Shown in pieces: positions 7,315-42,917 of a stretch of DNA of 42,917 nucleotides. The position numbers were made by a program, and so were the translations under genes. Below the pieces are notes generated by a model. That model was not told the origin of the DNA and did no database searches. It was given only the letters and a program-made list of their open reading frames with translations. The DNA is from Terriglobia bacterium. GTDB lineage: Bacteria; Acidobacteriota; Terriglobia; Terriglobales; Acidobacteriaceae. The stretch spans positions 1-42,917 of the forward strand of contig JAIQFZ010000025.1 in the NCBI GenBank assembly GCA_020073015.1, given 5' to 3'. How positions within the stretch are numbered: position 1 is the first letter of the stretch; each line of letters opens with the position of its first letter.

Positions 7315-7330
7315 TGGCATCCGGTGTGCT
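7315..7330 (+). promoter_or_regulatory. Candidate sigma-54 (-24/-12) promoter
   Basis: TGGCAT-N5-GTGCT has GG and GC ten bases apart, close to the sigma-54 consensus TGGCAC-N5-TTGCA. It points at the TPR gene that starts at 7398, giving a leader of about 55 nt. The match is imperfect (C to T in the -24 box, T to G in the -12 box). The window also encodes a sigma-54 activator (962-2431). Confidence 0.35.
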
Positions 7331-7397
7331 TGAAAGACCCGAATGGCTTCGTGCCTGGTTGCTTGAAGGCAGCGCGGATGGAAGGAGAAAACGACGA

Positions 7398-8036
7398 ATG
7401 CCCGATGAAACAGCACCGCCCGGATCCGTTTGGCAGGCGAGACAGGTGTATGGGATGGCGGCGGTTTGCCTGCTGGTGGGCTTGGCCATCGGCTACCTTT
7501 TTCGCGGTTCGCAGTCTCCTGCCCCGACCGCGCCGAAAGCGAGCCGTACCCAACCGGCCGCTATGGCGGGCACGACGGGCGGGCCGATGCCCAGCCTCGA
7601 GCAGATGAAACAGATGGCCGACAAGAAAGCCGAGCCGCTGCTCGCAAAGCTCAAGAGCGATCCGAACAACAGCGGCCTCCTCCTGCAGATCGGGAACATT
7701 TACAAAGCCACACACCAGTTCCAGGACGCGATCAGCTACTACGACCGGGCGTTGAAAGCGGATTCGAAGAACGTCCTGGCCCGCAACGAAATGGCCTCCT
7801 GCCTGTACTACACCGGAGACGCGGACGGCGCTCTGGCCCAGTTGGAGCAGTCGCTCAAAGCCGATCCCAAGAACGCGGACGCGCTGTTTAACCTCGGTGC
7901 GATCAAGCTGGACGCAAAGAAGGACGCCAAGGGAGCGGTCGCTGCATGGCAGCAGTTGCTGAAATCAAATCCTGAGCTGGACGCTCGCAAAAAGGCCGCG
8001 GTCCAGAAAGCGATTGCCGATGCCAGCAAGGGCTAA
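7398..8036 (+). CDS. Membrane-anchored TPR protein (NrfG/CcmH-like), 212 aa
   Basis: ATG 7398 follows a GGAAGGAG ribosome-binding site. The protein has one N-terminal membrane helix (VYGMAAVCLLVGLAIGYLF), a low-complexity Pro/Ala/Thr linker, and about three TPR units (LLLQIGNIYKATHQFQDAISYYDRAL; ARNEMASCLYYTGDADGALAQLEQSL; ALFNLGAIKLDAKKDAKGAVAAWQQLL). Helix-anchored periplasmic TPR domains of this size resemble NrfG and the C-terminal part of CcmH/CcmI, which present apocytochrome c during haem ligation. That role would fit the cytochrome locus next door, but it is inference. The following gene is a paralogue 33 bases downstream. Confidence 0.85.
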   Translation: MPDETAPPGSVWQARQVYGMAAVCLLVGLAIGYLFRGSQSPAPTAPKASRTQPAAMAGTTGGPMPSLEQMKQMADKKAEPLLAKLKSDPNNSGLLLQIGNIYKATHQFQDAISYYDRALKADSKNVLARNEMASCLYYTGDADGALAQLEQSLKADPKNADALFNLGAIKLDAKKDAKGAVAAWQQLLKSNPELDARKKAAVQKAIADASKG

Positions 8037-10631: not shown

Positions 10632-12122
10632 CTAGTCACTTCTCGCAATCGGCGAAAACTCGAGCACGACAATTCCGTCAAACTCTCCCATCTCACGGGG
10701 CACGAACATGCCCTGTGAGTACGAAACGAGCCACTCTAAGGTCGAATAGGATGCGGGACCCGCGATCACAAGGAACCGCTGGTGCCGTTGCGCGGCCGCC
10801 TGGACAGACTGGCTGGCGACCCGGATGGTCTCATCGTTCAGATCGAACGGCAGCAGAGCTGTCGGGGCGTCGAGCGGGTAATAACTCGCTTGAGAGAGAA
10901 GCGCGTTCTCGCTCGCAGGAGCCGGCATGGACTCGTAGTCTGATTCTATGAACGCGCTGCACATCAGGATCGGTGCTTTGTCAGGAGCGACATTCGCATT
11001 TACGAGTTCGAAGGCCGGCTTAAAACTCAGTTCGTGTTTTCGCATGTACGGATTGGCGTGATAGTAGAGGATGGTGACCACGACCAGACCCACGCAGAAC
11101 ATCTGCCTCAACAGGCGGGAATCGATGCGACTGGTGAGCAATCCCCAAGTCAATACGCTGCCCGGCACCGCGACCAGACAATAGCGCGAGATGAACAGGT
11201 GTAGCGGCGTCACGGCACTGATGCTATACAGGATCGCGCCCGGGACCAGGGCCAGGAGCGGGCAGAGCAAGATTGCGGGGAAGCAGTCGCGGTCCGGCAG
11301 CTTTAGTTTGCGAACCAGCGCCGCGACAAAAACTGCTATGAGAAATCCGATCAGCAGCTTCTGGGGCGCAAAGATCTTCAACGCAACCACGGTCTGCGCC
11401 AGCTCCGGGACCACGTGTGTTTGCCGGGTCCGATACAGACTCAGGACACGGAGAATCAGCGGCGCAGCGAACAAAATGAACGTCGCCAGTACAGCCGCCA
11501 GTTGCCGTACGTCTGCCTTGATCGAGCGCCCTCGCATCGCCAGGTAGTAAATCGCAAACGCGGGCAGGATGACTCCGAACAGGTAATGAAAGTAGAGAAT
11601 GGCAGCCGCCGCGACGCCGAACAGAACCGCATACTGTATTTGGGGCTGCGTCATCCACCGGATGAAGACGAAAATTGCCAGGTTGGTGGCCAGCAGGGCA
11701 AACGCATACGGGCGCGCGTCGGTCGCGGCAAAGACAACATCCGGATGAGTGCAGAAGAAGATGCAGGTAAGAAACGCAATCTCCGCGTCGAAAAGCTCGC
11801 GGGCGATCCGAAACAGAAAGTAGGCAGCACCCATGGTCGCGAGCATGGACGGGATCTTGAGCGCGATTTCCTGAGTGCCGAGAATCGATTTAGCAAACCA
11901 GAGGGTGTAAAGATAGCCGATCGAGGAAGGCATTTGCGCCGAGCGGCTCCAGATCCGCCCGAAGCCGCCGCTGACCTGCCAGTAGGCAAGCGTCTCGTCT
12001 ACCCAAAGCGGAGCCCGTACCGCCATCAGCCAGATCGACAACGAAGCCAACAACGAGACGGGATAGAGCAGCTTCGCGAGAACGGAAGCGGGCTTTTCAA
12101 TGCCGGTCGTCGCCGTCGCCAC
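10632..12122 (-). CDS. GT-C / dolichyl-phosphate-mannosyltransferase-like membrane protein, 496 aa
   Basis: About ten membrane helices follow a short N-terminus. The first loop has APLWVDETLAYWQVSGGFGRIW, the acidic D-E pair expected for GT-C (GT39/ArnT-like) sugar transferases that use polyprenyl-phosphate sugars at the outer face of the membrane. TDARPYAF in a later loop is also typical of this group. The start is GTG 12122, nine bases after the TGA of the 12-heme cytochrome gene, so it is very likely the last gene of the cytochrome operon. This makes glycosylation of an exported cytochrome or of the barrel a reasonable guess. The acceptor is unknown. Confidence 0.85.
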   Translation of the reverse strand: MATATTGIEKPASVLAKLLYPVSLLASLSIWLMAVRAPLWVDETLAYWQVSGGFGRIWSRSAQMPSSIGYLYTLWFAKSILGTQEIALKIPSMLATMGAAYFLFRIARELFDAEIAFLTCIFFCTHPDVVFAATDARPYAFALLATNLAIFVFIRWMTQPQIQYAVLFGVAAAAILYFHYLFGVILPAFAIYYLAMRGRSIKADVRQLAAVLATFILFAAPLILRVLSLYRTRQTHVVPELAQTVVALKIFAPQKLLIGFLIAVFVAALVRKLKLPDRDCFPAILLCPLLALVPGAILYSISAVTPLHLFISRYCLVAVPGSVLTWGLLTSRIDSRLLRQMFCVGLVVVTILYYHANPYMRKHELSFKPAFELVNANVAPDKAPILMCSAFIESDYESMPAPASENALLSQASYYPLDAPTALLPFDLNDETIRVASQSVQAAAQRHQRFLVIAGPASYSTLEWLVSYSQGMFVPREMGEFDGIVVLEFSPIARSD

Positions 12123-12131
12123 GGTCAGGGC

Positions 12132-14096
12132 TCACTTCTTCAGCCCGCCCACCGTGCCGGCGTGCGTGACACTGCCATCCGGATTGTGCACAGCGTTGTG
12201 GCAGGTCAGCGTGCAGGTGTTCGGGCCGTGGTTGTAGGAGACGGGAGAGCCTCCATTCGGAGCAACCACGTTTGTGTCGAAGCTGATGAGGCGCTGCCCG
12301 GACGGATTGGAGCTGCTGTTTCCGACACCATGCGAGGTATGGCAGGTCGAGCAACTGAAACCAGCATTGATGTGCACCGCGTGCTTGGCAAAGCTGGCGT
12401 TCTGCGTGATGTTGGAGAGGTTGTGGCACTTGCCGCACATCGCATAAGGACCATTCGCGCTGAGGTCGGGACTCGGGAAGAGGTTGGTGATCATCTGACC
12501 CGGCGCGGGCGCCTGGCTTAGTTCATAGCGGCGCTCGAGGATGTGCCCCCACTTCGATCCATGGGGACCGATGGGGCCGGTGCCTCCGAATTCGCGGTTG
12601 TCGTCGCTGTTGTGACAATCAGTGCAGAAAATCTGCGTGCCCATCGCGCGGCCTTGCGTGGCGCCATTCAGGTTCCACATGTTGGGAAGCAGGCTGGGCT
12701 GCGACAGAGAACTGTTCCGCGGATGAAATACCGGGTGGCTTGATCCGGCGTTCACGCCGAACTGTGGAATGACGTTCAGCCCTTCGGCTACGGACGCCAG
12801 GCGCGCCGGGCTATAGTCGTATTTGGAGGAGTCGGTAAGCTTCTTCGAGTTTGCTCCGTGGCAGCGCAGGCAGGTCTGGAACTGGTACTGCGCGGGCCGC
12901 ACAATGGTCGTTCCGTCCTTCTCACTCACGCCCCAAACCGCATTCTGCGCGGCGCGCAGAGCTGGAGCCACGGTCAGAGCGGCACTCGACCCGATGGCAT
13001 GGGGCTCGTGACAATCCGTGCACCCGGTTTCGGTGGGATTATTCGGTGACACCGTCGTGGCCTCTCCACGGTTCCGGGCGGAAGTTCGGACTTGGAGCAG
13101 AGTTTTCCCGGTGGATATCGGATGACCAATCTTGGCGTACTCGGCGGCAACGTTGAGGCTAGTCATCGCCTTGGCGGGACCCACCAGGCTGGGAGCCGGG
13201 ATAGCCGCGTTCCGGCCAAAGGGATTGATGCCGGCCGCGGTCGCGGGGCTCGTGCCGGAATGGCAGTTCAAGCAGACCTGGTCGCCCGCGCCGCGCAGCA
13301 ATTCGCTTGCTCCGGCGGCGTTGTGATCGGTGTGGCAGGAGAAGCACGCGTTCACACTCAGGGTCGAATAGGGCAGGTTCTGCACAGTCGCATTATTGGT
13401 GGCGTGGACGCTCGTCGGCCAGCCCGCCAGCGGATTCGTCTGGCCCGTCACCACGCGATTGGGATCGTGACACGCCAGGCACATCGCACCACCGGAACTG
13501 TCCTTGACCAGAAAGTATTGGGCGACCAGATCCTTGGCTTGGACGTGCGGGTTGTGACACGTCGTGCACTCGATGTTTCCATTGACCAGCTTGATCGCGC
13601 CGGTCGGATCGGCGGTCTGGCCTTTCGAGGCCAAAGTATCGACTAGGTTGGGCGCATCTACAATCGGCAGAACCACGCTCAAAGGATGGGACGACTGGAG
13701 ATTGGTGCCGAACACGTCGGTCGCGTACATCGAGCCGGTCGTGGTCACCTTGCCGGCGACAATCGTCTGTCCGACTGCGACGGTCCCGTCGTGGCAGCTC
13801 AGACACAAGTTGCTGTCCCCACCGAGCAGGGGCTGCGCCCCGCTCTGGTGATAGGTTGAGCTGGTATACAGACTATAGATTTGCTTGGTCAGCGTTTGGT
13901 TCCAAAGCGCCCGACCGGAAGCCAGTCCGGAGTGCGGAGCGTGGCAGTAGCTGCACGAACCCGGGCGAGCGCCCGTGACGGGCGACGTGCTGCCGGGCGA
14001 GAGATCATGCTGGCCGATTACGTCGCCGGTAATCTGCGCGAACAGTGTTCCGGTCACCAACACGACGATGCAGGCAAACAGGAGCTTCAACTTCAC
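12132..14096 (-). CDS. Secreted dodecaheme-type multiheme cytochrome c, 654 aa
   Basis: A signal peptide (KLKLLFACIVVLVTGTLFAQ) is followed by eleven CXXCH haem sites (CSYCH, CLSCH, CTTCH, CLACH, CFSCH, CLNCH, CTDCH, CLRCH, CTDCH, CGKCH, CSTCH) and one near the C-terminus with an extra residue, CTLTCH. Many extra His residues (APHSG, NPHV, SHPLS, IGHPIS, EPHA) can act as distal ligands. Several motifs fit the doubled-CXXCH type (CHxPH). The start is GTG 14096, which follows GGGAGGAAGCCA and overlaps the TGA of the upstream beta-propeller gene by four bases (GTGA), so translation is coupled. It likely sits in the periplasm, outer membrane or cell surface as an electron conductor. Ser/Asn/Gly-rich spacers between haem groups suit an extracellular protein. 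Confidence 0.93.
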   Translation of the reverse strand: MKLKLLFACIVVLVTGTLFAQITGDVIGQHDLSPGSTSPVTGARPGSCSYCHAPHSGLASGRALWNQTLTKQIYSLYTSSTYHQSGAQPLLGGDSNLCLSCHDGTVAVGQTIVAGKVTTTGSMYATDVFGTNLQSSHPLSVVLPIVDAPNLVDTLASKGQTADPTGAIKLVNGNIECTTCHNPHVQAKDLVAQYFLVKDSSGGAMCLACHDPNRVVTGQTNPLAGWPTSVHATNNATVQNLPYSTLSVNACFSCHTDHNAAGASELLRGAGDQVCLNCHSGTSPATAAGINPFGRNAAIPAPSLVGPAKAMTSLNVAAEYAKIGHPISTGKTLLQVRTSARNRGEATTVSPNNPTETGCTDCHEPHAIGSSAALTVAPALRAAQNAVWGVSEKDGTTIVRPAQYQFQTCLRCHGANSKKLTDSSKYDYSPARLASVAEGLNVIPQFGVNAGSSHPVFHPRNSSLSQPSLLPNMWNLNGATQGRAMGTQIFCTDCHNSDDNREFGGTGPIGPHGSKWGHILERRYELSQAPAPGQMITNLFPSPDLSANGPYAMCGKCHNLSNITQNASFAKHAVHINAGFSCSTCHTSHGVGNSSSNPSGQRLISFDTNVVAPNGGSPVSYNHGPNTCTLTCHNAVHNPDGSVTHAGTVGGLKK

Positions 14097-15163
14097 TGGC
14101 TTCCTCCCGCGCGAGACCACTTGCCCGCACCGTAATAGTGAAAAACCTGGATCCGGCGATTGAAGGAATCCACGACGAAGATCCGGTCCTGACGATCAAT
14201 GGAAAGGCCCGCCGGTAACTGGAACTCCCCCGCTTGCGTGCCCCGGCTTCCGAAGTAGTACAGCAACTCGCCCTGGCGGTTGAACACCTGGACCATGCCC
14301 CACAATCCGTCGACGACGTAGAGGTCGCCCTCGGAATCAACTCCGATGCCTTTGGGCCGGAACATCGTACCCGTGCTGTCACCAATGGTTCCGATGGCGA
14401 AGCGGAATGTCCCGGAGCGGTCGAGCACCTGCACGCGGAAGTTCATGGCATCGACCACCATGAGGTTGTCGCCGTCCAAGTGCAGTTCGGTCGGGTAGTT
14501 GAACTCTCCCTCAGCGCTGCCGTTCTTGCCGATCGTCTGCAATACGGATCCCTGCATGTCCAGCATGAAGATCTTGTTGCGCAGAGTGTCGGTGACGTAA
14601 ATGCGCTGCGCCTTGGAATCGACCGCGATTCCGGTCGGCCGTTTGAAGTAGCCTTCGCCACCTTTCAGGCTGCCGATGGCGCGCTGATACTTGCCGTTGG
14701 CGTCGAAGACAAAGATCTTGCCCGCTTCCGAGTCGGTCACGTAAAGGTTGTCGCTCGCATCCACGGCCACGCACTGGGGAGCAAGCATCGGGTCCTTGGC
14801 ATCTTCGTCGCGCGTGAGGAACTTGTACTTTTTGTTCTGGAAATCGAAGACGTGAACTCCGACGGCGCCGGGGTCCGTCACGATGATGCGTCCGCGGGAA
14901 TCAGTGGCCACGCTGTACGGGCGGACCAGACGTTTAAAGTCCGGTTCGCCGGCCACGAAATCGAGCACGCGGTTCCAGAACCCGCGCTTGGGCTTGACTT
15001 CAAATTCCGAGCTGAAGCTGCGCTCGTAGCTGAGCCGGCGGCCACCTTCCAACTGCAGGTCGGGAGGCGCAAGCGCGACTTCGGCTGGCTGCTTGGTAGG
15101 CTTGAAGGCTGCCGCCAGAGCCAGCAGCAAAACCACGGTCGCGAGTTGGAGTGCTTTACGCAA
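14093..15163 (-). CDS. Exported NHL-repeat six-bladed beta-propeller, 356 aa
   Basis: A signal-like N-terminus (RKALQLATVVLLLALAAAF) and a linker are followed by at least five NHL blades from about residue 75. Each has a pattern like GVAVDSxGxIYVTDxxNxRIQVF, for example RPYSVATDSRGRIIVTD, QCVAVDASDNLYVTDS, TGIAVDSKAQRIYVTD, KGIGVDSEGDLYVVDG and AGLSIDRQDRIFVVDS. The initiation codon is TTG at 15163, chosen because it starts the signal peptide 12 bases after the barrel gene stop; I see no strong ribosome-binding site. It is paralogous to the propeller at 19154-20455. NHL proteins often lie next to multiheme cytochromes in metal-reducing bacteria, where they are thought to scaffold partners; that is established context, not proof here. 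Confidence 0.9.
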   Translation of the reverse strand: MRKALQLATVVLLLALAAAFKPTKQPAEVALAPPDLQLEGGRRLSYERSFSSEFEVKPKRGFWNRVLDFVAGEPDFKRLVRPYSVATDSRGRIIVTDPGAVGVHVFDFQNKKYKFLTRDEDAKDPMLAPQCVAVDASDNLYVTDSEAGKIFVFDANGKYQRAIGSLKGGEGYFKRPTGIAVDSKAQRIYVTDTLRNKIFMLDMQGSVLQTIGKNGSAEGEFNYPTELHLDGDNLMVVDAMNFRVQVLDRSGTFRFAIGTIGDSTGTMFRPKGIGVDSEGDLYVVDGLWGMVQVFNRQGELLYYFGSRGTQAGEFQLPAGLSIDRQDRIFVVDSFNRRIQVFHYYGAGKWSRAGGSQ

Positions 15164-15175
15164 TGAGACTGAATT

Positions 15176-17023
15176 CTAAAAGAAATTGAACGACCGGGAG
15201 AACCCCACGAAGAACGAACCGACTTCTCCGGGAGGCAGCCCCGAGGCGCTGAAACTCTGGAGAATTCGTCCGTAGCCCGCCGTGAACATGATCTTTCTTA
15301 CCCGGTAGTTGAGAATCGCGTTCACCTGATCCGCTTTGTTCCACGAGCCCACGCCGCCGGTGGCCGTGTTGCTCCGTGATCTCGAGAAACTCGCACCCAT
15401 GGAGAGGTTGCGGATCGGGCTCCCGCTCAACGAAAACGATTCACTGGTGCCACCGTAGAGGATGATCCAATCCGCAGGAATTGTACCCGGCGGCGGTTGT
15501 ACCCCGCTCCCGCCGAGAAGCCCAAACCCATCCGACTTCGCGAAGGCGGCACTGGCCGTGATGCGGCGCACCCCCACACTGGTGGAGTAACTCTGGCTGC
15601 TGTTGCCGGTGTTGGGCTGGTTGTTCAACGCGCTTCGCGATCCGGCGGCGGTCGCGCTCCAGACGAACCGGCCATCGAAGAAGCGGCGCCGCACGTTGCC
15701 GGAGTAGTTGTAAAACGAATTCATGTACGTGATCAGGTAGGTTTGGACGTTCTGGGCATAGCTGAAGTCAACACTCAGCATCCAGAGGTGCACGGGACGA
15801 TTGAAAGCGACGTTGGTCGAGAAACTGAGCGAATTTCCAGAGACGTTATCGGTGTAGTTGTCGGCGACATTCAGGGAAGTGCTTAAGAACCCACCGAGGG
15901 CCCCGGTGGTGTAAGTCAGGCCTCCACCAAAGGTGTTGGCGCCATAACTGCTTCCCAGATAGCTCTGCTGACGACGCTGCGCTTCCGCTTGGATCTGCAA
16001 GCCTGAGGTCAGGGCGTAGCTGGTGACGCCGGTCAGGTAAAGAGAGTTCGACGACTGCTGCGACTGGAAGATGCCACCACCCGCTCCGGTTTGGCCTCCG
16101 CCCGGCAGCAGATTCTGAAACAAGCTGCCAGTCAGACTATCGGTGTAGCCCATGCTCAACGATGCATTCCACCTCGGCTTGGGATTCACTCCAGCACTTG
16201 CGTTGACTGTATCCACAATACCGTGGTAGCTCGAACCAAAGTAGTCGGCGTTGATGTCGGACCGGGTAAAAGAAGACGAAAAAGACCCGTGCATGGGAAG
16301 CTGGTGTGAGGCAGTGAACAGGAACGTGTTGTTGTCGGAAGTGACCTTCTGCACGGTCTGGTCTCCCGACACAAGCGGGATTTCGGCATTCGACGTTCCC
16401 AAGGTATAGCCCGCGCTCAGGTCGAAACCGGCGGCGCGGTATCCAGACCGCAGGGAGAAATTGCGAAAGCTGTTGCTGCCATCCTGGTTGGAGCCGACGA
16501 CCGAGTAGTTGCTGCTGCCATCGGAGAAGGTGAACATCAGGCTGGGCCAGTCGGGAACCAGTTCACTCCAGCTGATATTGAGACCCTGGCTATTGCCGTT
16601 GGTCGTGTAATCAGCAAGGCCGGGCATATTGAAGGTTCCCTGGCTGTTCCACGCCCGGTTATAGGAAAACGCACCGGGGAAATGACTGCCGCCAAAGATG
16701 TTGGTGGAAAAGTCGAAGCCGCCCCCGTTGAACAGGGACCGAAATTCGGAGCTCTGACGAGATTGGTCATAGTACGGCGAGAGGTTAAAGGAAAGAAAAT
16801 TAGGATCGTAATAAGAACCGGAGAGGGTCCCGTTGCCTCCGAAATTCAACCCGTGGTTGGAATTGATCTGGTTGCCGTAAACCCCGTTGTATCCGCCCGT
16901 CATGACGCCGTTCAGGTTCATCTTGAGGTTGTCGCCCACCTGGATCTGACCTGCCGCCGGGAGGGCCAGCAGGAGCAGAAGTCCTGGGAGCGCTCGGTAA
17001 AGAATCCGAAATTGACTCACCAT
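15176..17023 (-). CDS. Predicted outer-membrane beta-barrel protein, 615 aa
   Basis: A signal peptide (MVSQFRILYRALPGLLLLLALPAAGQ) precedes a long Asn/Ser/Gly/Tyr-rich chain of alternating polar and hydrophobic residues. It ends in a C-terminal aromatic stretch (GFSRSFNFF), the outer-membrane sorting signal seen in BAM substrates. Repeated short strands such as LSFNLSPYYDQSRQ, LRSGYRAAGFDLSAGYTLG and ILNYRVRKIMFTAGYGRIL support a barrel of many strands. No CXXC motif like that of MtrB is present. The gene lies between a PpiC chaperone and a propeller-cytochrome pair, which suggests the pore of a conduit or an export channel. The family name is not certain. It starts at ATG 17023, 25 bases after the chaperone stop. 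Confidence 0.85.
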   Translation of the reverse strand: MVSQFRILYRALPGLLLLLALPAAGQIQVGDNLKMNLNGVMTGGYNGVYGNQINSNHGLNFGGNGTLSGSYYDPNFLSFNLSPYYDQSRQSSEFRSLFNGGGFDFSTNIFGGSHFPGAFSYNRAWNSQGTFNMPGLADYTTNGNSQGLNISWSELVPDWPSLMFTFSDGSSNYSVVGSNQDGSNSFRNFSLRSGYRAAGFDLSAGYTLGTSNAEIPLVSGDQTVQKVTSDNNTFLFTASHQLPMHGSFSSSFTRSDINADYFGSSYHGIVDTVNASAGVNPKPRWNASLSMGYTDSLTGSLFQNLLPGGGQTGAGGGIFQSQQSSNSLYLTGVTSYALTSGLQIQAEAQRRQQSYLGSSYGANTFGGGLTYTTGALGGFLSTSLNVADNYTDNVSGNSLSFSTNVAFNRPVHLWMLSVDFSYAQNVQTYLITYMNSFYNYSGNVRRRFFDGRFVWSATAAGSRSALNNQPNTGNSSQSYSTSVGVRRITASAAFAKSDGFGLLGGSGVQPPPGTIPADWIILYGGTSESFSLSGSPIRNLSMGASFSRSRSNTATGGVGSWNKADQVNAILNYRVRKIMFTAGYGRILQSFSASGLPPGEVGSFFVGFSRSFNFF

Positions 17024-17048
17024 ATTGGCACCACTTCTCTGGCTGTGG

Positions 17049-18062
17049 TTACAGCACTTCGATCTTTGCTTTCTGCGTCAGTTTCTTATTCAGGTCGGCT
17101 CGCACCTGGTTGGTCTTCTTTTGTTCCAACTGCTTCCGCAACTTGTCTTTCACTTCCTCAAACTTGAACTGGCCCGCCGGAGTGTGTTTGTTCAGCCGCA
17201 CGATCGTGAAGGCGTTTTCGACCTGAACCAAGTTGGTGATTTGTCCCGGCTGAAGGTTCTGCAGGGCCTGCGCCACCGCGGGCGCAATCTGGGAGCGATC
17301 CATGGTCTTGTGATCGCCCATCATCACGCGGTAATCGTCTTCCGACACTTTTTCTGCCAGTAAACCAAACTCTTCATAGGTCTTCGTCGCTTTCGCCTTT
17401 GGCAGCGCCTCTTCGGCGCGTTTGCGGGCTTCCTGCACCTGGCTGGGTGTTGCCTTCTCGGGCGGCAAGAACGAAATCGTCTGGATGGCAAACGATTCCG
17501 GGTATTGGAATTTGCCGGGATTCTTGTCGTAAAAAGCCTTGGCTTCAGCGACTGACACGGTGGACTTATTGTCCACTTCCAGCTTCAGTAATTGCTCGAT
17601 CAGGAGTGAGCGGCGAATTTTCTCGCGCATCGCCTGCTGCGATCCATGACACTCGGTCTGCAAGAAATTCTGATATTCGTCCGGCGTTGAAAATTGCTTC
17701 CGGAATTCTGCTTGTGCGCGGCTCAGGCGCTCGGGAGAAACCGTCATCTTCCGCTGCAGCGCCTCCTGGTACACCAATTCTTCGAAAATGATCATCTGCA
17801 GAGCGCCCTTACGAATATCGGGCTCCAGTTCCTTGGGAACATTCCCGCCATGCTGGCGCGCGTAAGGGAAGATGGTGAAAATCTCGCGCTGCAGGTCGCG
17901 GTCGGTCAGAACCGCGCCGTTCACCCGGGCGACGGGCTGACCGGCAGGCTGGGGCGTCGCAGACTTCGCGGTCACACCCACGGTCGGTGCGTGCGAAGCG
18001 ACCTGGCCCGATACCGAGAGGCTGATCAAGAGCACCGCGCCGATCAGAAAGTGGAATTTCAT
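17049..18062 (-). CDS. Periplasmic SurA/PpiC-type peptidyl-prolyl isomerase, 337 aa
   Basis: A signal peptide (MKFHFLIGAVLLISLSVSGQ) is followed by a SurA-N-like chaperone segment (VARVNGAVLTDRDLQREIFTIFPYARQHGG, about residues 44-160). Next comes a parvulin-like region (FAIQTISFLPPEKA to ITNLVQVENAFTIVRLNKHTPAG, about 190-300) and a Lys/Glu-rich helical tail. It should help fold or escort outer-membrane proteins and exported cytochromes. A single unpaired Cys (TECHG) is present and is not a haem site. ATG 18062 follows GAGGAAAT. It lies directly downstream of the terminator hairpin at 18091-18117 and upstream of the barrel gene, its likely client. Confidence 0.92.
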   Translation of the reverse strand: MKFHFLIGAVLLISLSVSGQVASHAPTVGVTAKSATPQPAGQPVARVNGAVLTDRDLQREIFTIFPYARQHGGNVPKELEPDIRKGALQMIIFEELVYQEALQRKMTVSPERLSRAQAEFRKQFSTPDEYQNFLQTECHGSQQAMREKIRRSLLIEQLLKLEVDNKSTVSVAEAKAFYDKNPGKFQYPESFAIQTISFLPPEKATPSQVQEARKRAEEALPKAKATKTYEEFGLLAEKVSEDDYRVMMGDHKTMDRSQIAPAVAQALQNLQPGQITNLVQVENAFTIVRLNKHTPAGQFKFEEVKDKLRKQLEQKKTNQVRADLNKKLTQKAKIEVL

Positions 18063-18085
18063 ATTTCCTCGTTCGTGAAACCTTG

Positions 18086-18117
18086 AAAATAAGGGGAGAG
18101 ATAACCTCTCTCCCCTT
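18086..18117 (-). terminator. Strong hairpin terminator or attenuator after the 4-heme cytochrome gene
   Basis: AAGGGGAGAGA (18091-18101) pairs perfectly with TCTCTCCCCTT (18107-18117) over an 11-bp stem with a 5-nt loop. Read on the minus strand it is followed by ATTTTC (18085-18090), a short U-tract. It lies 14 bases past the cytochrome stop and before the PpiC gene, so it should end most transcripts while allowing some read-through. Confidence 0.75.
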
Positions 18118-18131
18118 TTAAGTCAGACAAA

Positions 18132-19001
18132 CTAGAACTGCGTTCCCATGGTGCTGCCGTTCATTTCGTTCGCGTCGCCACCATGGCATTGGCGGCAGAA
18201 CTGCGCGACCTGGTTCGAGCCCGGATTGGTGTTGGCCGGGTTGTAGGGACCACGCACGAAGAACATCGTCAGGTAGGTTCCCGACGGCAGTCCGGAGTTG
18301 CCCTTGGCCGCTTGCAGACCCTGGGTGACCACGGAAATGTTCTGCACGTGCTGGTGATGGCAGGTGGTGCAAGTCACCGTGGCCACGCCAGCGTTGTTGC
18401 CGAGGTTCACGAAAAAGCCATAGTTCTGATAAAACTTGGCAGAGTTGGTCCCGGTCATCTGGGGCTTGCCGTTGACAACCACGCAATCCCACTCGGTGCA
18501 GTCGATGGTTGCCTGCAAGCCCACCGGGTGATCGTTGAGGTAGTTGCCGGCAGAAGTGCCGTCATTACCGAGCAGTGTCGGAATGGTGTTGTAGGTGCCG
18601 TACGTGCTGGGCAGCGGCTCATAGACCGCGTTTTTCATCATGGCGCCCTTTGCGAGGTTGCCGTCATGGCAACTCAGGCACTCCGTGATGTTGCGATCGA
18701 CACCGGTCGAGTCCAGCCCCACCAGCGTTTCTGGCCATTTACCACTGTCGCCAAAATTGAGGGTCTGGCCCACGAGAGAGCCGAGATCCTGGCCCCACAG
18801 GGCATGGACGCCCGCTTGTGCGTAGGGGGTTTTGGCAGCGCCGTTGCCGTACACACCGCTGTGCGGGGCATGGCAAGCGGTGCAGCCGCGGCCGTAGTTG
18901 AGGTGCGCGCCCAAGCTATCAGTCGATACCGTTCCGATCTGAGCCATCGCGAACCCTGCCACGGCAACAACTGCGAGCAGTACAAATAGGACTTTCTTCA
19001 T
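18132..19001 (-). CDS. Small secreted tetraheme cytochrome c (candidate filament or shuttle subunit), 289 aa
   Basis: A signal peptide (MKKVLFVLLAVVAVAGFAMAQ) is followed by four CXXCH sites at C40 (CTACH), C108 (CLSCH), C211 (CTTCH) and C269 (CRQCH). Spare His residues at 33, 47, 66, 158, 216 and 218 are enough for bis-His ligation. An additional Cys pair (DCTEWDC, 168/173) may form a disulfide. The chain is Gly/Asn/Thr rich, with about 55-100 residues between haems and an aromatic C-terminus (GTQF). Four haems in a secreted chain of this size recall OmcE-type extracellular cytochromes, but homology was not tested. ATG 19001 follows a near-ideal AGGAGGT. It has its own long leader and a downstream terminator, as expected for the most highly expressed gene of the locus. 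Confidence 0.92.
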   Translation of the reverse strand: MKKVLFVLLAVVAVAGFAMAQIGTVSTDSLGAHLNYGRGCTACHAPHSGVYGNGAAKTPYAQAGVHALWGQDLGSLVGQTLNFGDSGKWPETLVGLDSTGVDRNITECLSCHDGNLAKGAMMKNAVYEPLPSTYGTYNTIPTLLGNDGTSAGNYLNDHPVGLQATIDCTEWDCVVVNGKPQMTGTNSAKFYQNYGFFVNLGNNAGVATVTCTTCHHQHVQNISVVTQGLQAAKGNSGLPSGTYLTMFFVRGPYNPANTNPGSNQVAQFCRQCHGGDANEMNGSTMGTQF

Positions 19002-19153
19002 TTGGATAAGACCTCCTGATGATGTGTTCGAACACTTCACTTTTTGTTGACCTCTGTTGCTTTCTTGCTACTGATTACTTCTTCCGGAGACGGGCGCTGC
19101 CGGCAGTGCCCTATCCCCGTTCTGGCTCCCCGTAGGGCGCCAAAGTCGGGCCG
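19002..19153 (-). promoter_or_regulatory. Leader/promoter region of the tetraheme cytochrome gene
   Basis: A 152-bp spacer in an otherwise tightly packed gene string. It holds a 20-bp inverted repeat with one mismatched pair, centred on CTGCCGGCAG (19092-19111), and a perfect 12-bp palindrome GTGTTCGAACAC (19024-19035) shortly before the AGGAGGT. One may serve as an operator. I cannot assign a clear -35/-10 pair. Confidence 0.4.
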
Positions 19154-20455
19154 TTACTGCACCGGCGGAATCTGCGCATCCAGTTGCGCGTTGTCTTTCG
19201 GTTTCCCTTGGTCTTGCCCTCTGTCTTGCACTTTGTCTTTCTCTCCGTCCTTCTGCGCCGCGCCGGCCGATTTCTCACGCTCGGCCTTCATTTGCGCCGA
19301 CTCAGCGTCGGTGATGTAACGGAACTGTTGTACCCGTCCCCAGGGATACTGCTCAGAGACGAAAACCCGGTTGTTCTTATCGATCACGATTCCCATCGGA
19401 TCGTTGAAGCGGCCCAAGCTACGTCCCGGACCGCCTACGTACGCGAGAAGTTCGCCATCGCGGTTATAGATTTCGACGAGCGCAAGGCCGGTATCCACCA
19501 CCCAGATGTGTCCGTCGCTATCCACGGCGATGCCTTTGGGGCGCTCAAAGCAGCCGATGGCGTCGCAGTGCTGGCCGAACTGGCTGAGGAATTGGCCCTC
19601 TGCGTCGAAGATTTCGATTCGGAAGTTCAGCGAATCGGTGACGTACACATTACCCTCCTTGTCGAGGGCGATATTGGTAGGCAGGGAAAACTCACCCGGA
19701 CCGGTCAGAGTGTGCTTCTTGCCCGGGGTGCCGATCTTGCGCAGCGGTTTGAGGCTGTCAGCGTCGTAGACCAGGACCACGTCTTGCTTGGTATCCACGA
19801 CGTAGAGGAGGCGGCGCTCGGTATCGATCGCGAGCCCGAGTGGATCCACCAAGCCCTCGTTAATTTGCGCCTCGACCTTGTGGTTGGCATCGAAGACCAA
19901 AACCTTGCCCAGCTTTCCGTCGGAGACGAAGACCCGGTCGTTGTCGTCGATGGCAATGGCATTGATCATGGCGAAGTGCGCTTCGAAGCCGTTGCGGATC
20001 AGTTCGCTGTCTCTGGTCTCGGTGTTGAAGACGAAAATCGCGCCGACCTTCTGGTCCGCCACGTAGAGCCGGTTCTTCGAATCGACCGCCATGCCGTAGG
20101 GGCCGAGCAACTGGAAAGGGAAGTTCCTGTTGGTGACTTTTTCGTCCTGCGTTTGGCCACCCGCCAGGCGATCCATCCAGCTTTGCGTCGGCTTTTTGCC
20201 TTCGGCGGCGTAGTCGATCTTCATACCCGCGAAATAGTTCGTGTACTTAATGCGCGGGAGGTTCGGCGGCTCCGGCCAGACCAGTTTGCTGAGGTCGACC
20301 TGCGGCCTCGGCTCGGCCTTCTTCTGCGTAGTGGCGGCGGGCTTCTTCTTCTTCGCCTGGACTGCAACCGGCGAAACCAGTGCCAGCACGAGGACCGCGA
20401 TCAGCGCCAGGGCTGTTTTGCAGCCGCGGATTGAAGTTGGATGAACGTTGAACAT
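19154..20455 (-). CDS. Exported NHL-repeat beta-propeller with charged tail, 433 aa
   Basis: A signal peptide (CKTALALIAVLVLALVSPVAVQA) and a Lys/Pro linker are followed by about six NHL blades (YGMAVDSKNRLYVADQ, NAIAIDDNDRVFVSDG, LGLAIDTERRLLYVVD, TNIALDKEGNVYVTDS, KGIAVDSDGHIWVVDT, MGIVIDKNNRVFVSEQ). The highly charged Lys/Asp/Gln tail of about 45 residues is unlike the paralogue at 14093-15163. ATG 20455 begins two bases after the TAA of the 16-heme cytochrome gene, and its ribosome-binding site (GGAGGCGAAGT) lies inside that gene, so the pair is co-translated. The longer frame upstream to 20815 is only a shadow of the cytochrome gene. Role is likely scaffold or partner of the cytochrome, in the periplasm or on the surface. 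Confidence 0.9.
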   Translation of the reverse strand: MFNVHPTSIRGCKTALALIAVLVLALVSPVAVQAKKKKPAATTQKKAEPRPQVDLSKLVWPEPPNLPRIKYTNYFAGMKIDYAAEGKKPTQSWMDRLAGGQTQDEKVTNRNFPFQLLGPYGMAVDSKNRLYVADQKVGAIFVFNTETRDSELIRNGFEAHFAMINAIAIDDNDRVFVSDGKLGKVLVFDANHKVEAQINEGLVDPLGLAIDTERRLLYVVDTKQDVVLVYDADSLKPLRKIGTPGKKHTLTGPGEFSLPTNIALDKEGNVYVTDSLNFRIEIFDAEGQFLSQFGQHCDAIGCFERPKGIAVDSDGHIWVVDTGLALVEIYNRDGELLAYVGGPGRSLGRFNDPMGIVIDKNNRVFVSEQYPWGRVQQFRYITDAESAQMKAEREKSAGAAQKDGEKDKVQDRGQDQGKPKDNAQLDAQIPPVQ

Positions 20456-20457
20456 GG

Positions 20458-22047
20458 TTACTTCGCCTCCCCCATCTGTGTCATATCCAGGCGGTTCTGG
20501 TGGCAGTTGTCGCAGAACGCCATGTTGTTCTGCTGGTCCTTGACCAGGAGCTTGGGCTGGGCGCCAGCATGCGGTTGGTGGCACCGCAAACAGCTCAGCG
20601 GAGTTTTCACTTTGTTGACATTCGTTGGATCCATCACGTCCGAAACCGGGTGCCGGGCTACGGGGTGGCCCAGGCCATAGCGGAGCGGCAGGACGAAAGC
20701 CTTGTTCTTGTCGAAGTAGTCTTCGGGCAGCCTGACCTTGCCGTCGAAGATGGTCAGCAGGTGCTGGGCTTCCAACTTCTGCGGCACTGAGTCGGCGCCG
20801 TGACACTCCAAACAAAGCGCGTTGCCTTGGGCGCGCAGCAGCTTTGCGCGTTCGCTGCCGTGCGGCTCATGGCAGACCGCGCAGCCCTGCCCGAACGCGG
20901 GCTGGTGGTGTACTGCTTTCTTCGCCTGATCCGCCAGTTCGGTATGGCAGCCCAGACAAATGTTGACCGGGTCGGTCTTCGGCAATCCGGGGTTGTTGCT
21001 GGCGTGCGGGCTGTGGCAATCCGTGCAATCGCCGGCCGCGCCGGGATGTTGGACTTTGGCGGTCTCGATCAACTTCGCCTTGTCGCCGTGGCAGGTGACG
21101 CAGAGCGCCTTGACATCGGACTGGGTTAGGACGACTTTGCCGTCCTTGGCAGGGGCGTGGCAGAGTTCGCAGTTCCGGTCGGCGAAGGGAGGGTGCACGA
21201 ACTTCGCCATCAGCTTGGGTGCCGCCGACTGATGCGGATCATGACAGCTCAGACAATTAGCGGTGCCAAATGGCTGATTGTGATGCGTCTTCTGCAGGGC
21301 GGCGTCTTTCGGGTCGTGACAGTCGACGCACAGCGCCGGGGCGGCTCTGGTCAGGTGGAACTGGTTTTCAGGAGTCACATCCGCGCCCGTCTTGTGCGTC
21401 GTGTGGCAGGTGTCGCAGCCCAGATCGAGGGCGGCGTGGCGGCTGCCTTTGTCCGGAACGTTCGTGCCTTGCGTGTGGCAGGTGAGGCAGAGATTGTCTT
21501 TCTTCTCGCCGGAAGTCGCCTTCAGCAGCTGATTGTTGTTGGCCGAAGTGTGCGGATCGTGGCAGGTCAGGCAATCGCGAACTGCCGGCTGGTGGACATG
21601 TCCCTTGATCTGCGTGGCATCTTTGTCGCCGTGGCAGGTGAGGCACAGCTTGTACGGGGTGGCGGTGATCAGCATGACCCGGGTGGTGTCTTTGTTGACC
21701 CGGACCTGGTGACAGCTGAGACAGCCGGTGGCGATGGCCGAGTGAACGGCCGTGCCCTTGGTCTTGTCTTCGTGACACTCGAGACACTTGGCGCTGTCAA
21801 TCTTCGGATCGAGCGGAACCGGGTGAATGGCACTGAACGCACGTGGCAAACAGACGGCAGCCAGGCTCAGGGCCATCCCGATGCGCAGGATCGAGCCCAT
21901 GAGCGGGGAGGGGTGGCTCCCCGGACGCCCCAGGCTCTTGCTCTTGCTCACGAACTGGGATATAGCGCTCACCCTAGTCTCCGGCTGGTAATGGTGCACG
22001 AGAGTCGCCGCCCGGGTGGGCGTTGTGAAAATTTTCATCGTTTCCAT
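20458..22047 (-). CDS. Exported hexadecaheme multiheme cytochrome c (doubled CXXCH type)
   Basis: Sixteen CXXCH motifs are packed in about 450 residues: CLECH, CLSCH, three CLTCH, CDTCH, CVDCH, CLSCH, CELCH, CVTCH, CTDCH, CLGCH, CAVCH, CLECH, CLRCH, CDNCH. Paired motifs with CHxPH/CHDPH (CLTCHDPH, CLSCHDPH, CTDCHSPH, CAVCHEPH, CLRCHQPH) are typical of the doubled-CXXCH fold. The density of about one haem per 28 residues suggests a compact molecular wire in the periplasm or outer membrane. The start is uncertain. ATG 22047 gives 529 aa with a 50-residue lead before the hydrophobic segment. ATG 21900 gives a textbook signal peptide (MGSILRIGMALSLAAVCLPRAFSA, cleaved before IHP; 24 residues counted in pieces) but has no ribosome-binding site. 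It is the first gene of the minus-strand locus, divergent from resB. Confidence 0.92.
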   Translation of the reverse strand: METMKIFTTPTRAATLVHHYQPETRVSAISQFVSKSKSLGRPGSHPSPLMGSILRIGMALSLAAVCLPRAFSAIHPVPLDPKIDSAKCLECHEDKTKGTAVHSAIATGCLSCHQVRVNKDTTRVMLITATPYKLCLTCHGDKDATQIKGHVHQPAVRDCLTCHDPHTSANNNQLLKATSGEKKDNLCLTCHTQGTNVPDKGSRHAALDLGCDTCHTTHKTGADVTPENQFHLTRAAPALCVDCHDPKDAALQKTHHNQPFGTANCLSCHDPHQSAAPKLMAKFVHPPFADRNCELCHAPAKDGKVVLTQSDVKALCVTCHGDKAKLIETAKVQHPGAAGDCTDCHSPHASNNPGLPKTDPVNICLGCHTELADQAKKAVHHQPAFGQGCAVCHEPHGSERAKLLRAQGNALCLECHGADSVPQKLEAQHLLTIFDGKVRLPEDYFDKNKAFVLPLRYGLGHPVARHPVSDVMDPTNVNKVKTPLSCLRCHQPHAGAQPKLLVKDQQNNMAFCDNCHQNRLDMTQMGEAK

Positions 22048-22422: not shown

Positions 22423-22600
22423 CATAGGGCGGTGATGGGTGAAATCTCGGATGGCCGGAACGGGGGTGCGTGATTTGGCCCAAGAACGGTTGCGATCGGC
22501 GGCTTCGAGAATCTCATAACTGCCATGAATTGAGGTGATTAGCGACCTGTCTCCATCTGGAGCGGAACGTGCATTTCGAAGAGGCGACGGGGGGAGAAAT

Positions 22601-24052
22601 ATGGCCGTGAACTTCCGCGCAAGCGCCCGCAAGGTGTGGCAAACCGCCGCTTCGATTAAGACGGGCGTGGTTCTTTTGATTCTGGTCGTGATTTTTTCCG
22701 CCGCCGGCACGATTGTCCTGCAGCGCCCGAACACGGAACCGGACGAAATGCAGAATGCCTATTCGCCGCAAGCCCTCCGGATTCTCGATGGCACCGGCCT
22801 GACGGACGTGTTTCACGCATGGTGGTTCCTGACGCTCATGATTCTGGTGAGTTGCAGCATTATCGCCGCTTCCGTCGAGCGGTTCCCCAACGCGTGGCGC
22901 TATTTCTCGCGCCCCTACAAGTATCCTGATGAGAGCTTCCGGCGCGTGCTCTACCCACAGACGTCGCTGGCGATCGCGGACGAAGAAACCGGATTGGTTG
23001 CGGCCGAGCGCGCCCTGCACTCCTTGGGGTTCAAGCCCGAGCGGGTGGTGCGCGAAGACCACTTCGGAATTTTTGCGGAGCGGCACCGGATCTCCGAGAT
23101 GGGCGTTTATATCGTGCATGCCAGCCTGCTGCTGATTTTCTTCGGTGCCGTTGTCGACGGCATCTGGGGATGGCGCGGAACGCTCAACCTGAACGAAGGC
23201 GAGACTTCAAGCGCGGTCGAATTGCGGGACGGCACAACCAGAACTTTGCCGTTTGCCATCCGCTGCGACCAGGCTGGCCAGGAGAATTACAAAGACGGGA
23301 GCCCGAAGAAGTGGTGGTCGAAGCTGGTTGTGGTCAAGGACCAGAGAGAGGTTGAGAAAAAGGAAATCGTGGTGAACGATCCGCTGGTTTATCGCGGCGT
23401 GCGTTTCTACCAGTCCAGTTACGGGCCGAACGGCAAGGTGGAAAAATTCTCGATCACGGCCACTCCGAGCAGCGGTTCCGGCGAGAAACGGGAAATCTCG
23501 TTGGGTGTGCACGACACCGTTCCGCTCGATGCCGACACCACGGTGCGCTTCGCCGAGTTCATCCCCGACTACGCGGTGCGGGACGGGCAGGTCTACCGGC
23601 GTTCGAACGAATTGGGCAATCCCGCAGCGCATCTGGTGGTGAGCTCGAAGGCGTCCGGCAAGAGCTTTGACGTGTGGTTCCCGCCGTTGGAGGAAATCGC
23701 GGACAACTCGAAGGCCCCCTACCAGCTCCAGCCAGCGGATCTGCAGATGGGACACTTCACGGGGCTGCAAGTCTCACATGAGCCGGGCCAGTGGGCGGTG
23801 TGGACAGGCGTGGTGCTGCTGGGAATCGGGTTGGCTTTCGTGTTTTACGTGGTGCACATGCGGTTCTGGGCGGTACCGGTCCGCGACGGGAAGACGGGCA
23901 AGTACACGCTTTGGATCGGAGGCAGCGCCAACCGCAACCGGGACGCGTTTGGTCAGCGTTTCGATGACCTGGTTGCCTTGTTGGAAGAAACGCTGAGCAC
24001 TATTCCCAAGACCTCTCCGAGCGAGCAGGTCGCAACCGTCGCCGGGCACTGA
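22601..24052 (+). CDS. resB: Cytochrome c biogenesis protein ResB (Ccs1), 483 aa
   Basis: Three N-terminal membrane helices are present ([59 protein letters not shown], the last with a conserved His). A large periplasmic domain follows, containing GYRG-like [19 protein letters not shown], and then a last helix near residue 420 ([24 protein letters not shown]). This is the ResB layout of system II cytochrome c maturation, where ResB and CcsA together form the haem exporter and cytochrome c synthase. ATG 22601 follows GGGGGAGAAAT. It is the first gene of a plus-strand unit with ccsA, divergent from the cytochrome operon whose products need it. Confidence 0.95.
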
Positions 24053-24077
24053 TCCCGGGCGATTGGAGGATCGCACT

Positions 24078-39582: not shown

Positions 39583-42917
<3,335 letters not shown>

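What the first reader, a model, noticed from the sequence alone, without database searches (positions are those of the whole stretch)
10632..22047. Multiheme cytochrome / beta-barrel / beta-propeller locus: candidate extracellular electron-transfer module
Eight genes on one strand encode three exported c-type cytochromes (16, 4 and 12 haem sites), two exported NHL propellers, a PpiC chaperone, an outer-membrane barrel and a GT-C protein. Divergent resB-ccsA genes serve haem attachment. Porin-cytochrome conduits of metal reducers combine a barrel with inner and outer multiheme cytochromes, and loci with NHL and PPIase genes are known there. Here the barrel lacks the CXXC of MtrB and the set is arranged differently, so it may be a distinct conduit type. 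That function is inference.
Basis: partly seen in the sequence, partly recalled or inferred. Interest (0 to 1): 0.82.

Follow-up and report, generated by a model that had tools for sequence, protein, structure and literature searches.

The report
Soil acidobacterial cytochrome nanowire-conduit gene cluster
A soil bacterium carries, in one conserved block of genes, relatives of the protein that Geobacter polymerises into electron-carrying nanowires together with a likely outer-membrane pore and helper proteins, suggesting a dedicated apparatus for passing electrons across its outer surface.

Summary
Observation confirmed: eight minus-strand ORFs (10632-22047) encode 16-, 4- and 12-haem cytochromes, two NHL propellers, a PpiC-type isomerase, a beta-barrel and a GT-C protein, divergent from resB-ccsA. 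Seven of them (not GT-C) form a conserved cluster: 54 of 67 related loci keep 4-haem>PpiC>barrel>NHL>12-haem, 30 of 67 all seven in order. Similar clusters occur in at least five other acidobacterial families.

New: (1) the 4-haem protein belongs to the OmcE nanowire family; four CXXCH and four further His are invariant, and distant orthologues match OmcE (PDB 7tfs) at E 7e-35. (2) The 12-haem protein begins with an OmcE-type domain (E 3e-17). (3) The 16-haem protein is nearest MtrA; the barrel model's best structural match is MtrB. (4) A strong hairpin follows the 4-haem gene in 55 of 55 in-operon copies.

Best reading: an extracellular electron-transfer module joining an Mtr-like conduit to an OmcE-type nanowire, the 12-haem protein being a candidate filament anchor. 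Homology is shown; polymerisation, conduction and anchoring are inferred. New variant of a known kind.

The parts
20458..22047 (-). 16-haem cytochrome c, exported, MtrA-like (start 22047 or 21900; ORF opens at 22302)
   Evidence: 16 CXXCH; PDB best hit 6r2q_A of the Mtr complex, E 5e-19; TIGR03508 177.8 bits, under its cut-off of 192.2; 12 of the first 13 inter-haem spacings 21-28 residues, one 29
19154..20455 (-). NHL2, exported NHL beta-propeller
   Evidence: PF01436 NHL E 1.4e-25; 51 ORFs above 150 bits in the 67 loci, median identity 55%
18132..19001 (-). 4-haem cytochrome, OmcE-type (candidate nanowire subunit)
   Evidence: In the 82 full-length rows of A5 the 4 CXXCH and 4 further His are invariant (rows were chosen to have 4 motifs, 3 contig-end fragments left out); profile to PDB 9yuq E 1.9e-6; linked to OmcE through A10
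18095..18115 (-). Hairpin just after the 4-haem stop codon (possible attenuator or mRNA stabiliser)
   Evidence: z below -2 in 55 of 55 in-operon copies, the window included; best 36-nt energy of -15 or lower in 73 of 81 against 11-17 of 30 after each of the other six genes
17049..18062 (-). PpiC/SurA-like periplasmic peptidyl-prolyl isomerase
   Evidence: PF13145 E 3.7e-17, SurA_N_3 E 9.3e-12
15176..17023 (-). Outer-membrane beta-barrel, 28 long strands in the model, MtrB-like fold
   Evidence: AlphaFold2 pLDDT 75.5, pTM 0.62; Foldseek rank 1 MtrB 6r2q_B E 1.2e-9; VIA Z 17.7 over 454 residues; C-terminal Phe in 58 of 58
14093..15163 (-). NHL1, exported NHL beta-propeller
   Evidence: PF01436 E 3.3e-25; median identity 71%
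12132..14096 (-). 12-haem cytochrome: N-terminal OmcE-type 4-haem domain (residues about 22-210) plus 8 further haems
   Evidence: hmmsearch of A4: 7tfs (OmcE) E 2.7e-17 over profile positions 2-209; hhalign A8-A7 E 1.1e-20; the assumed GTG start overlaps the NHL1 stop (GTGA)
22535..24052 (+). resB, cytochrome c maturation, divergent
   Evidence: PF05140 E 1.7e-83; resB and ccsA are both in the locus in 21 of the 30 loci with the seven-gene run
24063..25481 (+). ccsA/ccsB, cytochrome c maturation
   Evidence: TIGR03144 246 bits, over its cut-off of 187.6
25687..26751 (+). Sensor histidine kinase next to ccsA (loosely associated)
   Evidence: HAMP-HisKA-HATPase_c; relatives in 23 of 67 loci

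Best explanation
An envelope-spanning extracellular electron-transfer module that joins an outer-membrane conduit to an OmcE-type cytochrome nanowire. SHOWN: gene content, conserved order, OmcE-family membership of the 4-haem protein and of the first domain of the 12-haem protein, MtrA-like 16-haem protein, MtrB-like fold of the barrel model, conserved hairpin after the 4-haem gene. INFERRED: the 16-haem protein carries electrons across the periplasm; the barrel, NHL1 and the 12-haem protein (adjacent or overlapping genes, so probably made in similar amounts) form the outer-membrane station; the 12-haem protein's OmcE-type domain docks to, or is the first unit of, a filament made of the 4-haem protein, which the hairpin would allow to be made in excess; PpiC and the propellers fold, export or scaffold these proteins. 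The direction of flow (reduction of Fe(III) or humics, or electron uptake) is open.
For: 4-haem family: 82 full-length rows keep 4 CXXCH and four further His, at the places where OmcE has His before haem 1, in CHxPH, in DHP and in CHxxH. Homology chain: A5-A10 E 1.4e-25, A10 to OmcE/9yuq E 2.5e-34, A10 to PDB 7tfs E 7.3e-35; A5-A8 E 1.4e-20, A8-A7 E 1.1e-20. Control: with all columns but the haem motifs shuffled, real scores of 141, 134 and 68 against maxima of 53, 63 and 48 in 40 shuffles each. 16-haem: 6r2q_A E 5e-19, next hit 0.0023. Barrel: MtrB is rank 1 by Foldseek and by VIA. Order: 54 of 67 (five genes), 30 of 67 (seven genes); all seven families somewhere in the locus in 46 of 67. The set 4-haem, barrel or barrel-like ORF, NHL and 12-haem recurs in L122-L124, L126, L127 and L130-L133. 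Hairpin.
Against: No experiment. The window family's own profile reaches OmcE 7tfs only at E 1.9; its significant direct hit is 9yuq. The AlphaFold2 model of the 4-haem protein is poor (pLDDT 63.8) and matched nothing. The barrel has no sequence match to a family model or PDB chain, lacks the CXXC, its Foldseek TM-score to MtrB is only about 0.5, and MtrB leads FimD modestly in VIA (Z 17.7 against 16.2). The MtrA-like slot holds 5, 7, 9, 12 or 16 haems in distant relatives, so a fixed MtrA-like plug in the barrel is not a constant. Carriers include a cultured soil isolate, Occallatibacter savannae, which I recall as aerobic.
Confidence: 0.6

Rival explanations
1. Nanowire secretion machine, not a conduit (shares the nanowire part with the best explanation, so the odds overlap): the barrel is the export pore for the 4-haem protein, as OscE/F/G are proposed to be for OmcS; PpiC is its chaperone, the propellers control filament shape, and the MtrA-like protein only loads electrons.
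For: Same kinds of parts as the osc cluster: OscH folding, OscE/F/G secretion, OscD morphology (passage in PMC13194489; that OscH is a prolyl isomerase and OscD propeller-like is recalled from the abstract of Shen et al. 2025). The MtrA-like slot varies in haem number while barrel, NHL and 12-haem recur. Ushers FimD and PapC are among the structural matches of the barrel.
Against: Best structural match is MtrB, not an usher. The 16-haem protein is among the better-conserved members (median 68%). PpiC is missing between the 4-haem and barrel genes in L122, L123, L124 and L127.
Confidence: 0.25
2. Porin-cytochrome conduit without filaments: the 4- and 12-haem proteins are monomeric surface reductases, the OmcE-type fold being shared but not polymerising.
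For: The 12-haem protein passes the Pfam cut-off for MtrC/MtrF domains (47 against 30 bits), though so does the 16-haem protein (40.7 bits). The window 4-haem protein has extra stretches between haems and 16 residues after the last haem motif, where OmcE has one.
Against: All four further His are kept, several loci carry two 4-haem genes, and the conserved hairpin suggests high dosage.
Confidence: 0.3
3. Periplasmic electron store or detoxification, not extracellular: the proteins buffer electrons or reduce soluble compounds.
For: Hosts are largely soil and peat bacteria with no metal respiration shown here; Eichorst et al. 2018 argued against Shewanella/Geobacter-like iron reduction in the strains they compared (PMC5900883, passages).
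Against: Companion barrel with C-terminal Phe in 58 of 58 aligned copies and OmcE homology.
Confidence: 0.1

Closest known systems
OmcE tetrahaem nanowire cytochrome of Geobacter sulfurreducens (PDB 7tfs), and PDB 9yuq
   Same: Four CXXCH in the same order and four further His at the same places (CHxPH, SCHDG, DHP, CHxxH signatures). Distant acidobacterial orthologues end within three residues of the fourth haem motif, as OmcE does.
   Different: The window protein is longer (269 residues mature), with extra stretches and a 16-residue tail; filament formation unproven.
MtrCAB / MtoAB porin-cytochrome conduits
   Same: MtrA-like multihaem protein plus a barrel whose best structural match is MtrB.
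   Different: 16 haems instead of 10; below the MtrA/DmsE family cut-off; barrel without CXXC or sequence similarity; the likely surface partners are OmcE-type. The same genome has a separate 10-haem MtrA-family protein followed by an 831-aa, probably barrel, protein.
osc (OmcS companion) nanowire cluster of Geobacter
   Same: Nanowire cytochrome with folding, secretion and morphology proteins (passage; their kinds recalled).
   Different: Tetrahaem OmcE-type instead of hexahaem OmcS; one barrel; adds MtrA-like and 12-haem proteins. Sequence homology to Osc proteins not tested.
Geoalkalibacter ferrihydriticus locus Ga0056053_02426-02431 (PMC12016550, passages)
   Same: MtoA-like cytochrome, OmcE homologue and two NHL proteins in one locus.
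   Different: Said to lack mtoB; the passages seen mention no PpiC and no 12-haem protein with an OmcE domain; a Geoalkalibacter, not an acidobacterium.
Porin-cytochrome complexes reported in Acidobacteria (PMC7399161, Holophaga; PMC13264449, cave MAGs; passages)
   Same: Multihaem cytochrome next to an outer-membrane porin in the phylum.
   Different: Passages seen describe MtrB- and ExtB/E-type porins or PCC groups around cytochromes of 10 or more haems; PMC13264449 says nanowires (OmcS, OmcE) were not investigated.

Membership tests
OmcE-type nanowire cytochromes | Four CXXCH haem sites with four further His in OmcE's order | tested here: met
   Invariant in 82 full-length rows (selected for 4 motifs); OmcE order read from the alignments
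OmcE-type nanowire cytochromes | Significant sequence homology to OmcE | tested here: met
   Through orthologues A10 (7tfs E 7.3e-35; A10-A5 E 1.4e-25). Direct: 9yuq E 1.9e-6 but 7tfs only E 1.9
OmcE-type nanowire cytochromes | Polymerises with an inter-subunit His ligand | not testable with these tools
   Needs cryo-EM; the haem-free AlphaFold2 model is poor
MtrA/DmsE decahaem family (TIGR03508) | Score over the curated cut-off | tested here: not met
   177.8 against 192.2 bits; the genome's other 10-haem protein scores 267.1
MtrB/PioB barrels | Match to a family model or to the MtrB sequence | tested here: inconclusive
   No relevant Pfam match in 58 of 58 at E 1; no NCBIfam match for the window copy; no PDB match for the profile. 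The probable barrels beside two 10-haem MtrA-family proteins miss Pfam too, so the test is insensitive. That Pfam holds an MtrB model is recalled
MtrB/PioB barrels | MtrB-like barrel fold | tested here: met
   Rank 1 in Foldseek (E 1.2e-9, TM about 0.5) and VIA (Z 17.7, 454 residues, rmsd 5.7); 28 long strands in the model
MtrB/PioB barrels | N-terminal CXXC of Shewanella MtrB (recalled) | tested here: not met
   0 of 58 have CXXC
osc nanowire assembly cluster | Nanowire-type cytochrome with PPIase, channel and propeller genes (definition partly recalled) | tested here: met
   By kind of gene only
osc nanowire assembly cluster | Homology to OscD, OscE/F/G, OscH | not tested
Geobacter OmbB-OmaB-OmcB conduits | Homology to OmbB, OmaB, OmcB | not tested
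   No such sequence fetched

The most novel reading that the evidence does not exclude
The 12-haem protein is a covalent seed for a cytochrome nanowire: its eight C-terminal haems sit in or under the MtrB-like barrel and its N-terminal OmcE-type domain acts as the first protomer, on which the 4-haem protein polymerises outside the cell. That would be a genetically encoded junction between an outer-membrane conduit and a nanowire, recurring in many families of Acidobacteriota.
Probability: 0.3. Interest if true: 0.9.

Novelty: new variant of a known kind. Interest (0 to 1): 0.72.

Why it matters
How cytochrome nanowires are anchored, charged and secreted is open: the review PMC12307469 (passages) lists membrane anchoring, electron entry and exit points, and secretion as unresolved. 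Here a nanowire-type cytochrome, a conduit-like barrel and a protein with a fused OmcE-type domain sit in one conserved cluster, which names a concrete candidate for the junction. It also bears on soil Acidobacteria: earlier genome work saw mtrA/mtrB-like genes but no complete mtr/omc operon (PMC5900883, passages), and a peat metagenome study did not find OmcE, OmcS or OmcZ by its searches while noting a 16-haem Koribacter cytochrome (PMC3669403, passages). Of the 67 loci here, 25 come from records whose isolate names begin with bog_, palsa_ or fen_, which I read as peatland MAGs.

Tried and rejected
GT-C gene as part of the module: rejected, relative in 2 of 67 loci. A different GT-C-like protein (8819-10300) has relatives in 10 of 67 loci; a role in filament glycosylation is only a guess.

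resB-ccsA as an obligate partner: rejected. Cluster carriers G171 and G023 have only remote matches to this CcsA; resB and ccsA are in 21 of the 30 loci with the seven-gene run, some loci being cut by contig ends.

Sigma-54 promoter idea (the window has an NtrC-type regulator at 962-2431): the pattern scan found fewer matches than chance (41 against 52.5). Sigma-70 scan: 0 sites.

Structure search with the 4-haem model: 25 chains compared, none at Z 2 or more. PMC9473688 (passages) reports that DALI and Foldseek find only close homologues for OmcS and OmcE too.

Covariation of the hairpin on an alignment of 34 of the copies: weak (4 consensus pairs, 2 with a both-sided change); the claim rests on per-locus folding. 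Limits: a T-rich tail (5 T in 10) was counted in 31 of 55, and the window's own tail has 4 T. The 81 stretches include 4-haem copies outside the operon, some of which have strong hairpins of other sequence and offset (e.g. L066, L073), as ordinary gene ends may. The stretches after the other genes are mostly coding and were samples of 30 per gene.

4-haem rows: of 84 ORFs, the 81 with four motifs were used; 3 with two motifs (L073, L075, L089) lie at locus ends. So 'four CXXCH in every row' is partly by selection; the invariance of the four further His is not.

Of the 13 of 67 loci without the five-gene run, eight are short or end at a contig end (L050, L063, L064, L074, L083, L089, L097, L099), two have a split barrel or NHL1 ORF (L104, L106), one lacks a recognised barrel ORF (L071), and two have the 4-haem gene with none or only an NHL-like neighbour (L095, L098). 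Several loci have all seven families in another order, with 16-haem and NHL2 beyond the 12-haem gene.

Literature: nine searches, seen as listings, with passages of thirteen papers opened. I saw no description of this cluster there; the library lacks most subscription journals. Shen et al. 2025 (osc cluster), Wang et al. 2022 (OmcE) and Baquero et al. 2023 are not held; the first is known here from a passage in PMC13194489 and recall.
Full report
What is there. The eight minus-strand ORFs are real. In transcription order: 16-haem cytochrome, NHL2, 4-haem cytochrome, PpiC, barrel, NHL1, 12-haem cytochrome, GT-C. Families: paired-CXXCH cytochromes, NHL propellers, SurA_N/rotamase, PMT_2; the barrel has no Pfam match. 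resB and ccsA are divergent. The count of 12 haems needs one CX3CH site, invariant in the 5 aligned sequences.

It is a conserved unit. In a phylum sample the 4-haem protein had matches in 8 of 247 genomes (three of them weak, E 7e-6 to 2e-4) and the barrel in 5 of 247, the own genome included in both; four relatives keep the neighbourhood, G171 with a rearrangement. A scan of named genomes confirmed 94 relatives, of which the best 80 (67 distinct loci) were kept, all from records titled Acidobacteria, Acidobacteriaceae, Terriglobia, Terriglobales or genera I know to be acidobacterial. Of these, 54 of 67 have 4-haem>PpiC>barrel>NHL1>12-haem, 30 of 67 all seven genes in order, 21 of 67 also resB and ccsA; 46 of 67 have all seven families somewhere in the locus. 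Median identities to the window: NHL1 71%, 16-haem 68%, PpiC 57%, NHL2 55%, 4-haem 54%, 12-haem 53%, barrel 40%. So order is kept although the barrel diverges strongly. With profiles, the barrel matches in 85 of 300 genomes of the family (33 of 79 genera) and the 4-haem family in 47 of 349 genomes of the class, at E 0.001 or lower; some of these matches are weak or partial, and some lie in long frames, probably OmcE-type domains of 12-haem proteins.

It extends beyond the family. Distant loci (L121-L128, L130-L134; L121 and L122 are still of the own family) have an MtrA-like cytochrome of varying haem number (5, 7, 9, 12 or 16, where seen), an NHL protein, a 4-haem protein (ORFs of 197-285 residues, 369 in L125), sometimes PpiC, and usually a second NHL and a 12-haem protein. 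A barrel or barrel-like ORF was listed in 10 of these 13; in L125 and L134 the gap at that place holds an open stretch of 669 and 647 codons, and L128 is cut. The barrel-like ORFs of L127 and L130-L133 do not match the barrel profile and are named only from length, place and C-terminal Phe. With a profile of seven distant 4-haem proteins, 44 of 297 genomes of the phylum have a match at E 1e-8 or lower (34 of 167 genera). By my reading of that table 19 of the 44 have a shorter match and a match in a frame of over 540 residues within 10 kb, as the 4-haem and 12-haem genes would give.

The 4-haem protein is OmcE-type. Its profile finds PDB 9yuq (16 chains of one multihaem cytochrome) at E 2.3e-5 with 7 sequences and 1.9e-6 with 82; 9yuq is a homologue of OmcE, PDB 7tfs (E 4.9e-33). 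In both profile searches the match includes the signal peptide; against the mature parts of OmcE and 9yuq, A5 gives E 9.6e-10, but over 53 columns only. The distant orthologues close the gap: their profile finds OmcE at E 7.3e-35 and aligns with the window family at E 1.4e-25 over all four haems. In the 82 full-length rows the four CXXCH and four further His are invariant; these correspond to the His of OmcE before haem 1, in CHxPH, in DHP and in CHxxH (read). Because CXXCH motifs inflate such scores I shuffled all other columns: real scores of 141 (A5-A8), 134 (A8-A7) and 68 (A5-A7) exceeded the best of 40 shuffles (53, 63, 48).

The 12-haem protein starts with an OmcE-type domain. Its profile finds OmcE at E 2.7e-17 and 9yuq at 2.4e-16 over positions 1-209, i.e. 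the first four haems; hhalign gives 1.1e-20 to OmcE/9yuq and 1.4e-20 to the 4-haem family. Eight further haems follow. In the window the assumed start overlaps the NHL1 stop (GTGA); in the loci ORF gaps barrel>NHL1 and NHL1>12-haem are mostly negative (medians -19 and -4), though ORFs were taken from the first possible start, which exaggerates overlap. Coupled translation is likely, not shown.

The 16-haem protein and the barrel look Mtr-like. The 16-haem protein's best PDB hit is chain A of 6r2q (E 5e-19; next 0.0023; the molecule field of that chain reads otherwise, but the fold library titles 6r2q 'Structure of the Mtr complex'; that chain A is MtrA and chain B MtrB is recalled). It fails the MtrA/DmsE cut-off (177.8 against 192.2 bits). 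The barrel model (58 sequences, pLDDT 75.5, pTM 0.62) has 28 long strands (my count) and its first match is 6r2q chain B: Foldseek E 1.2e-9 with TM 0.52/0.48, next 1.7e-7; VIA Z 17.7 over 454 residues, next 16.2. There is no sequence-level match. All 58 barrels end in Phe, 50 of 58 have no Cys, none has CXXC. The same genome has another locus with a 10-haem MtrA-family protein (267 bits) followed by a probable barrel, so the window locus is a second, different system.

Expression hint. A stable hairpin lies right after the 4-haem stop codon: z below -2 in 55 of 55 in-operon copies (the window and 54 loci), with a T-rich tail by my count in 31 of 55. Among 81 stretches after 4-haem genes 73 have a best 36-nt energy of -15 or lower; after each of the six other genes 11 to 17 of 30. 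Copies outside the operon mostly lack the G-rich hairpin at that place, though several have other hairpins (listing). A partial terminator or 3' stabiliser would let the 4-haem protein be made in excess, as a filament subunit would need. That is inference.

Mechanism. Most likely: electrons reach the 16-haem protein in the periplasm; barrel, NHL1 and 12-haem protein form the outer-membrane station; the 12-haem protein's OmcE-type domain hands electrons to, and may seed, a filament of the 4-haem protein; PpiC and NHL2 assist folding, export or scaffolding. Known nanowires OmcE and OmcS use a His from the neighbouring subunit (PMC12954529 and PMC9473688, passages), which an OmcE-type domain fused to another cytochrome could supply or receive. 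Which protein fills the barrel is not decided by my evidence: the MtrA-like slot varies among relatives while barrel, NHL and 12-haem recur, which favours the 12-haem protein; the fold match and the MtrA similarity favour the 16-haem protein. Or the barrel is the filament's export pore. These readings overlap, so their odds do not add up to one.

Comparison with what is known. The parts list matches the osc nanowire cluster in kind (PMC13194489 passage, and recall of Shen et al. 2025) and, in part, a Geoalkalibacter locus with MtoA-like, OmcE-like and two NHL proteins (PMC12016550 passages). I could not compare sequences with those. Porin-cytochrome complexes have been reported in Acidobacteria before (Holophaga, PMC7399161; cave MAGs, PMC13264449, which says nanowires were not investigated; passages only). 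The combination of OmcE-type subunit, OmcE-domain 12-haem protein, MtrA-like protein and MtrB-fold barrel in one cluster is what I found no description of in the searches named. I therefore call it a new variant of a known kind.

Noticed in passing
G000:C154, L118:5324-15664: Second multihaem locus in the same genome: 10-haem MtrA-family protein, 831-aa probable barrel, 19-haem cytochrome, a membrane protein without haem motifs, a 13-haem frame with membrane segments and a 7-haem protein (the last three by reading the sequence only).
   Followed up: partly
window 962-2431 and 25687-26751: NtrC-type response regulator and HAMP histidine kinase; relatives of both lie beside the cluster in G171, and in 14 and 23 of 67 loci. 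They may regulate cytochrome genes.
   Followed up: partly
window 8819-10300: GT-C-like membrane protein without a Pfam match; relatives near the cluster in 10 of 67 loci.
   Followed up: no
L110 (G247:C1:164996-166366, the genome of L057, Occallatibacter savannae): Its 16-haem gene reads with one in-frame TGA and lies apart from the rest of its cluster.
   Followed up: no
L129:12095-15190: A 1031-residue frame with 42 haem motifs near a 4-haem OmcE-type gene in a 68% G+C acidobacterial genome.
   Followed up: no
L121:1294-3150 and L123:10864-12828: Frames with 23 haem motifs inside or beside the distant clusters.
   Followed up: no
L044, L048, L053, L059, L086 and others: Second 4-haem copies, in tandem or inverted at the end of the cluster.
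   Followed up: partly
window 39583-42894: rpoC-like ORF (RNA polymerase beta') incomplete at its N-terminal end, at the window edge.
   Followed up: no
window 5894-7489: GGDEF diguanylate cyclase, no relative in the 67 loci.
   Followed up: no
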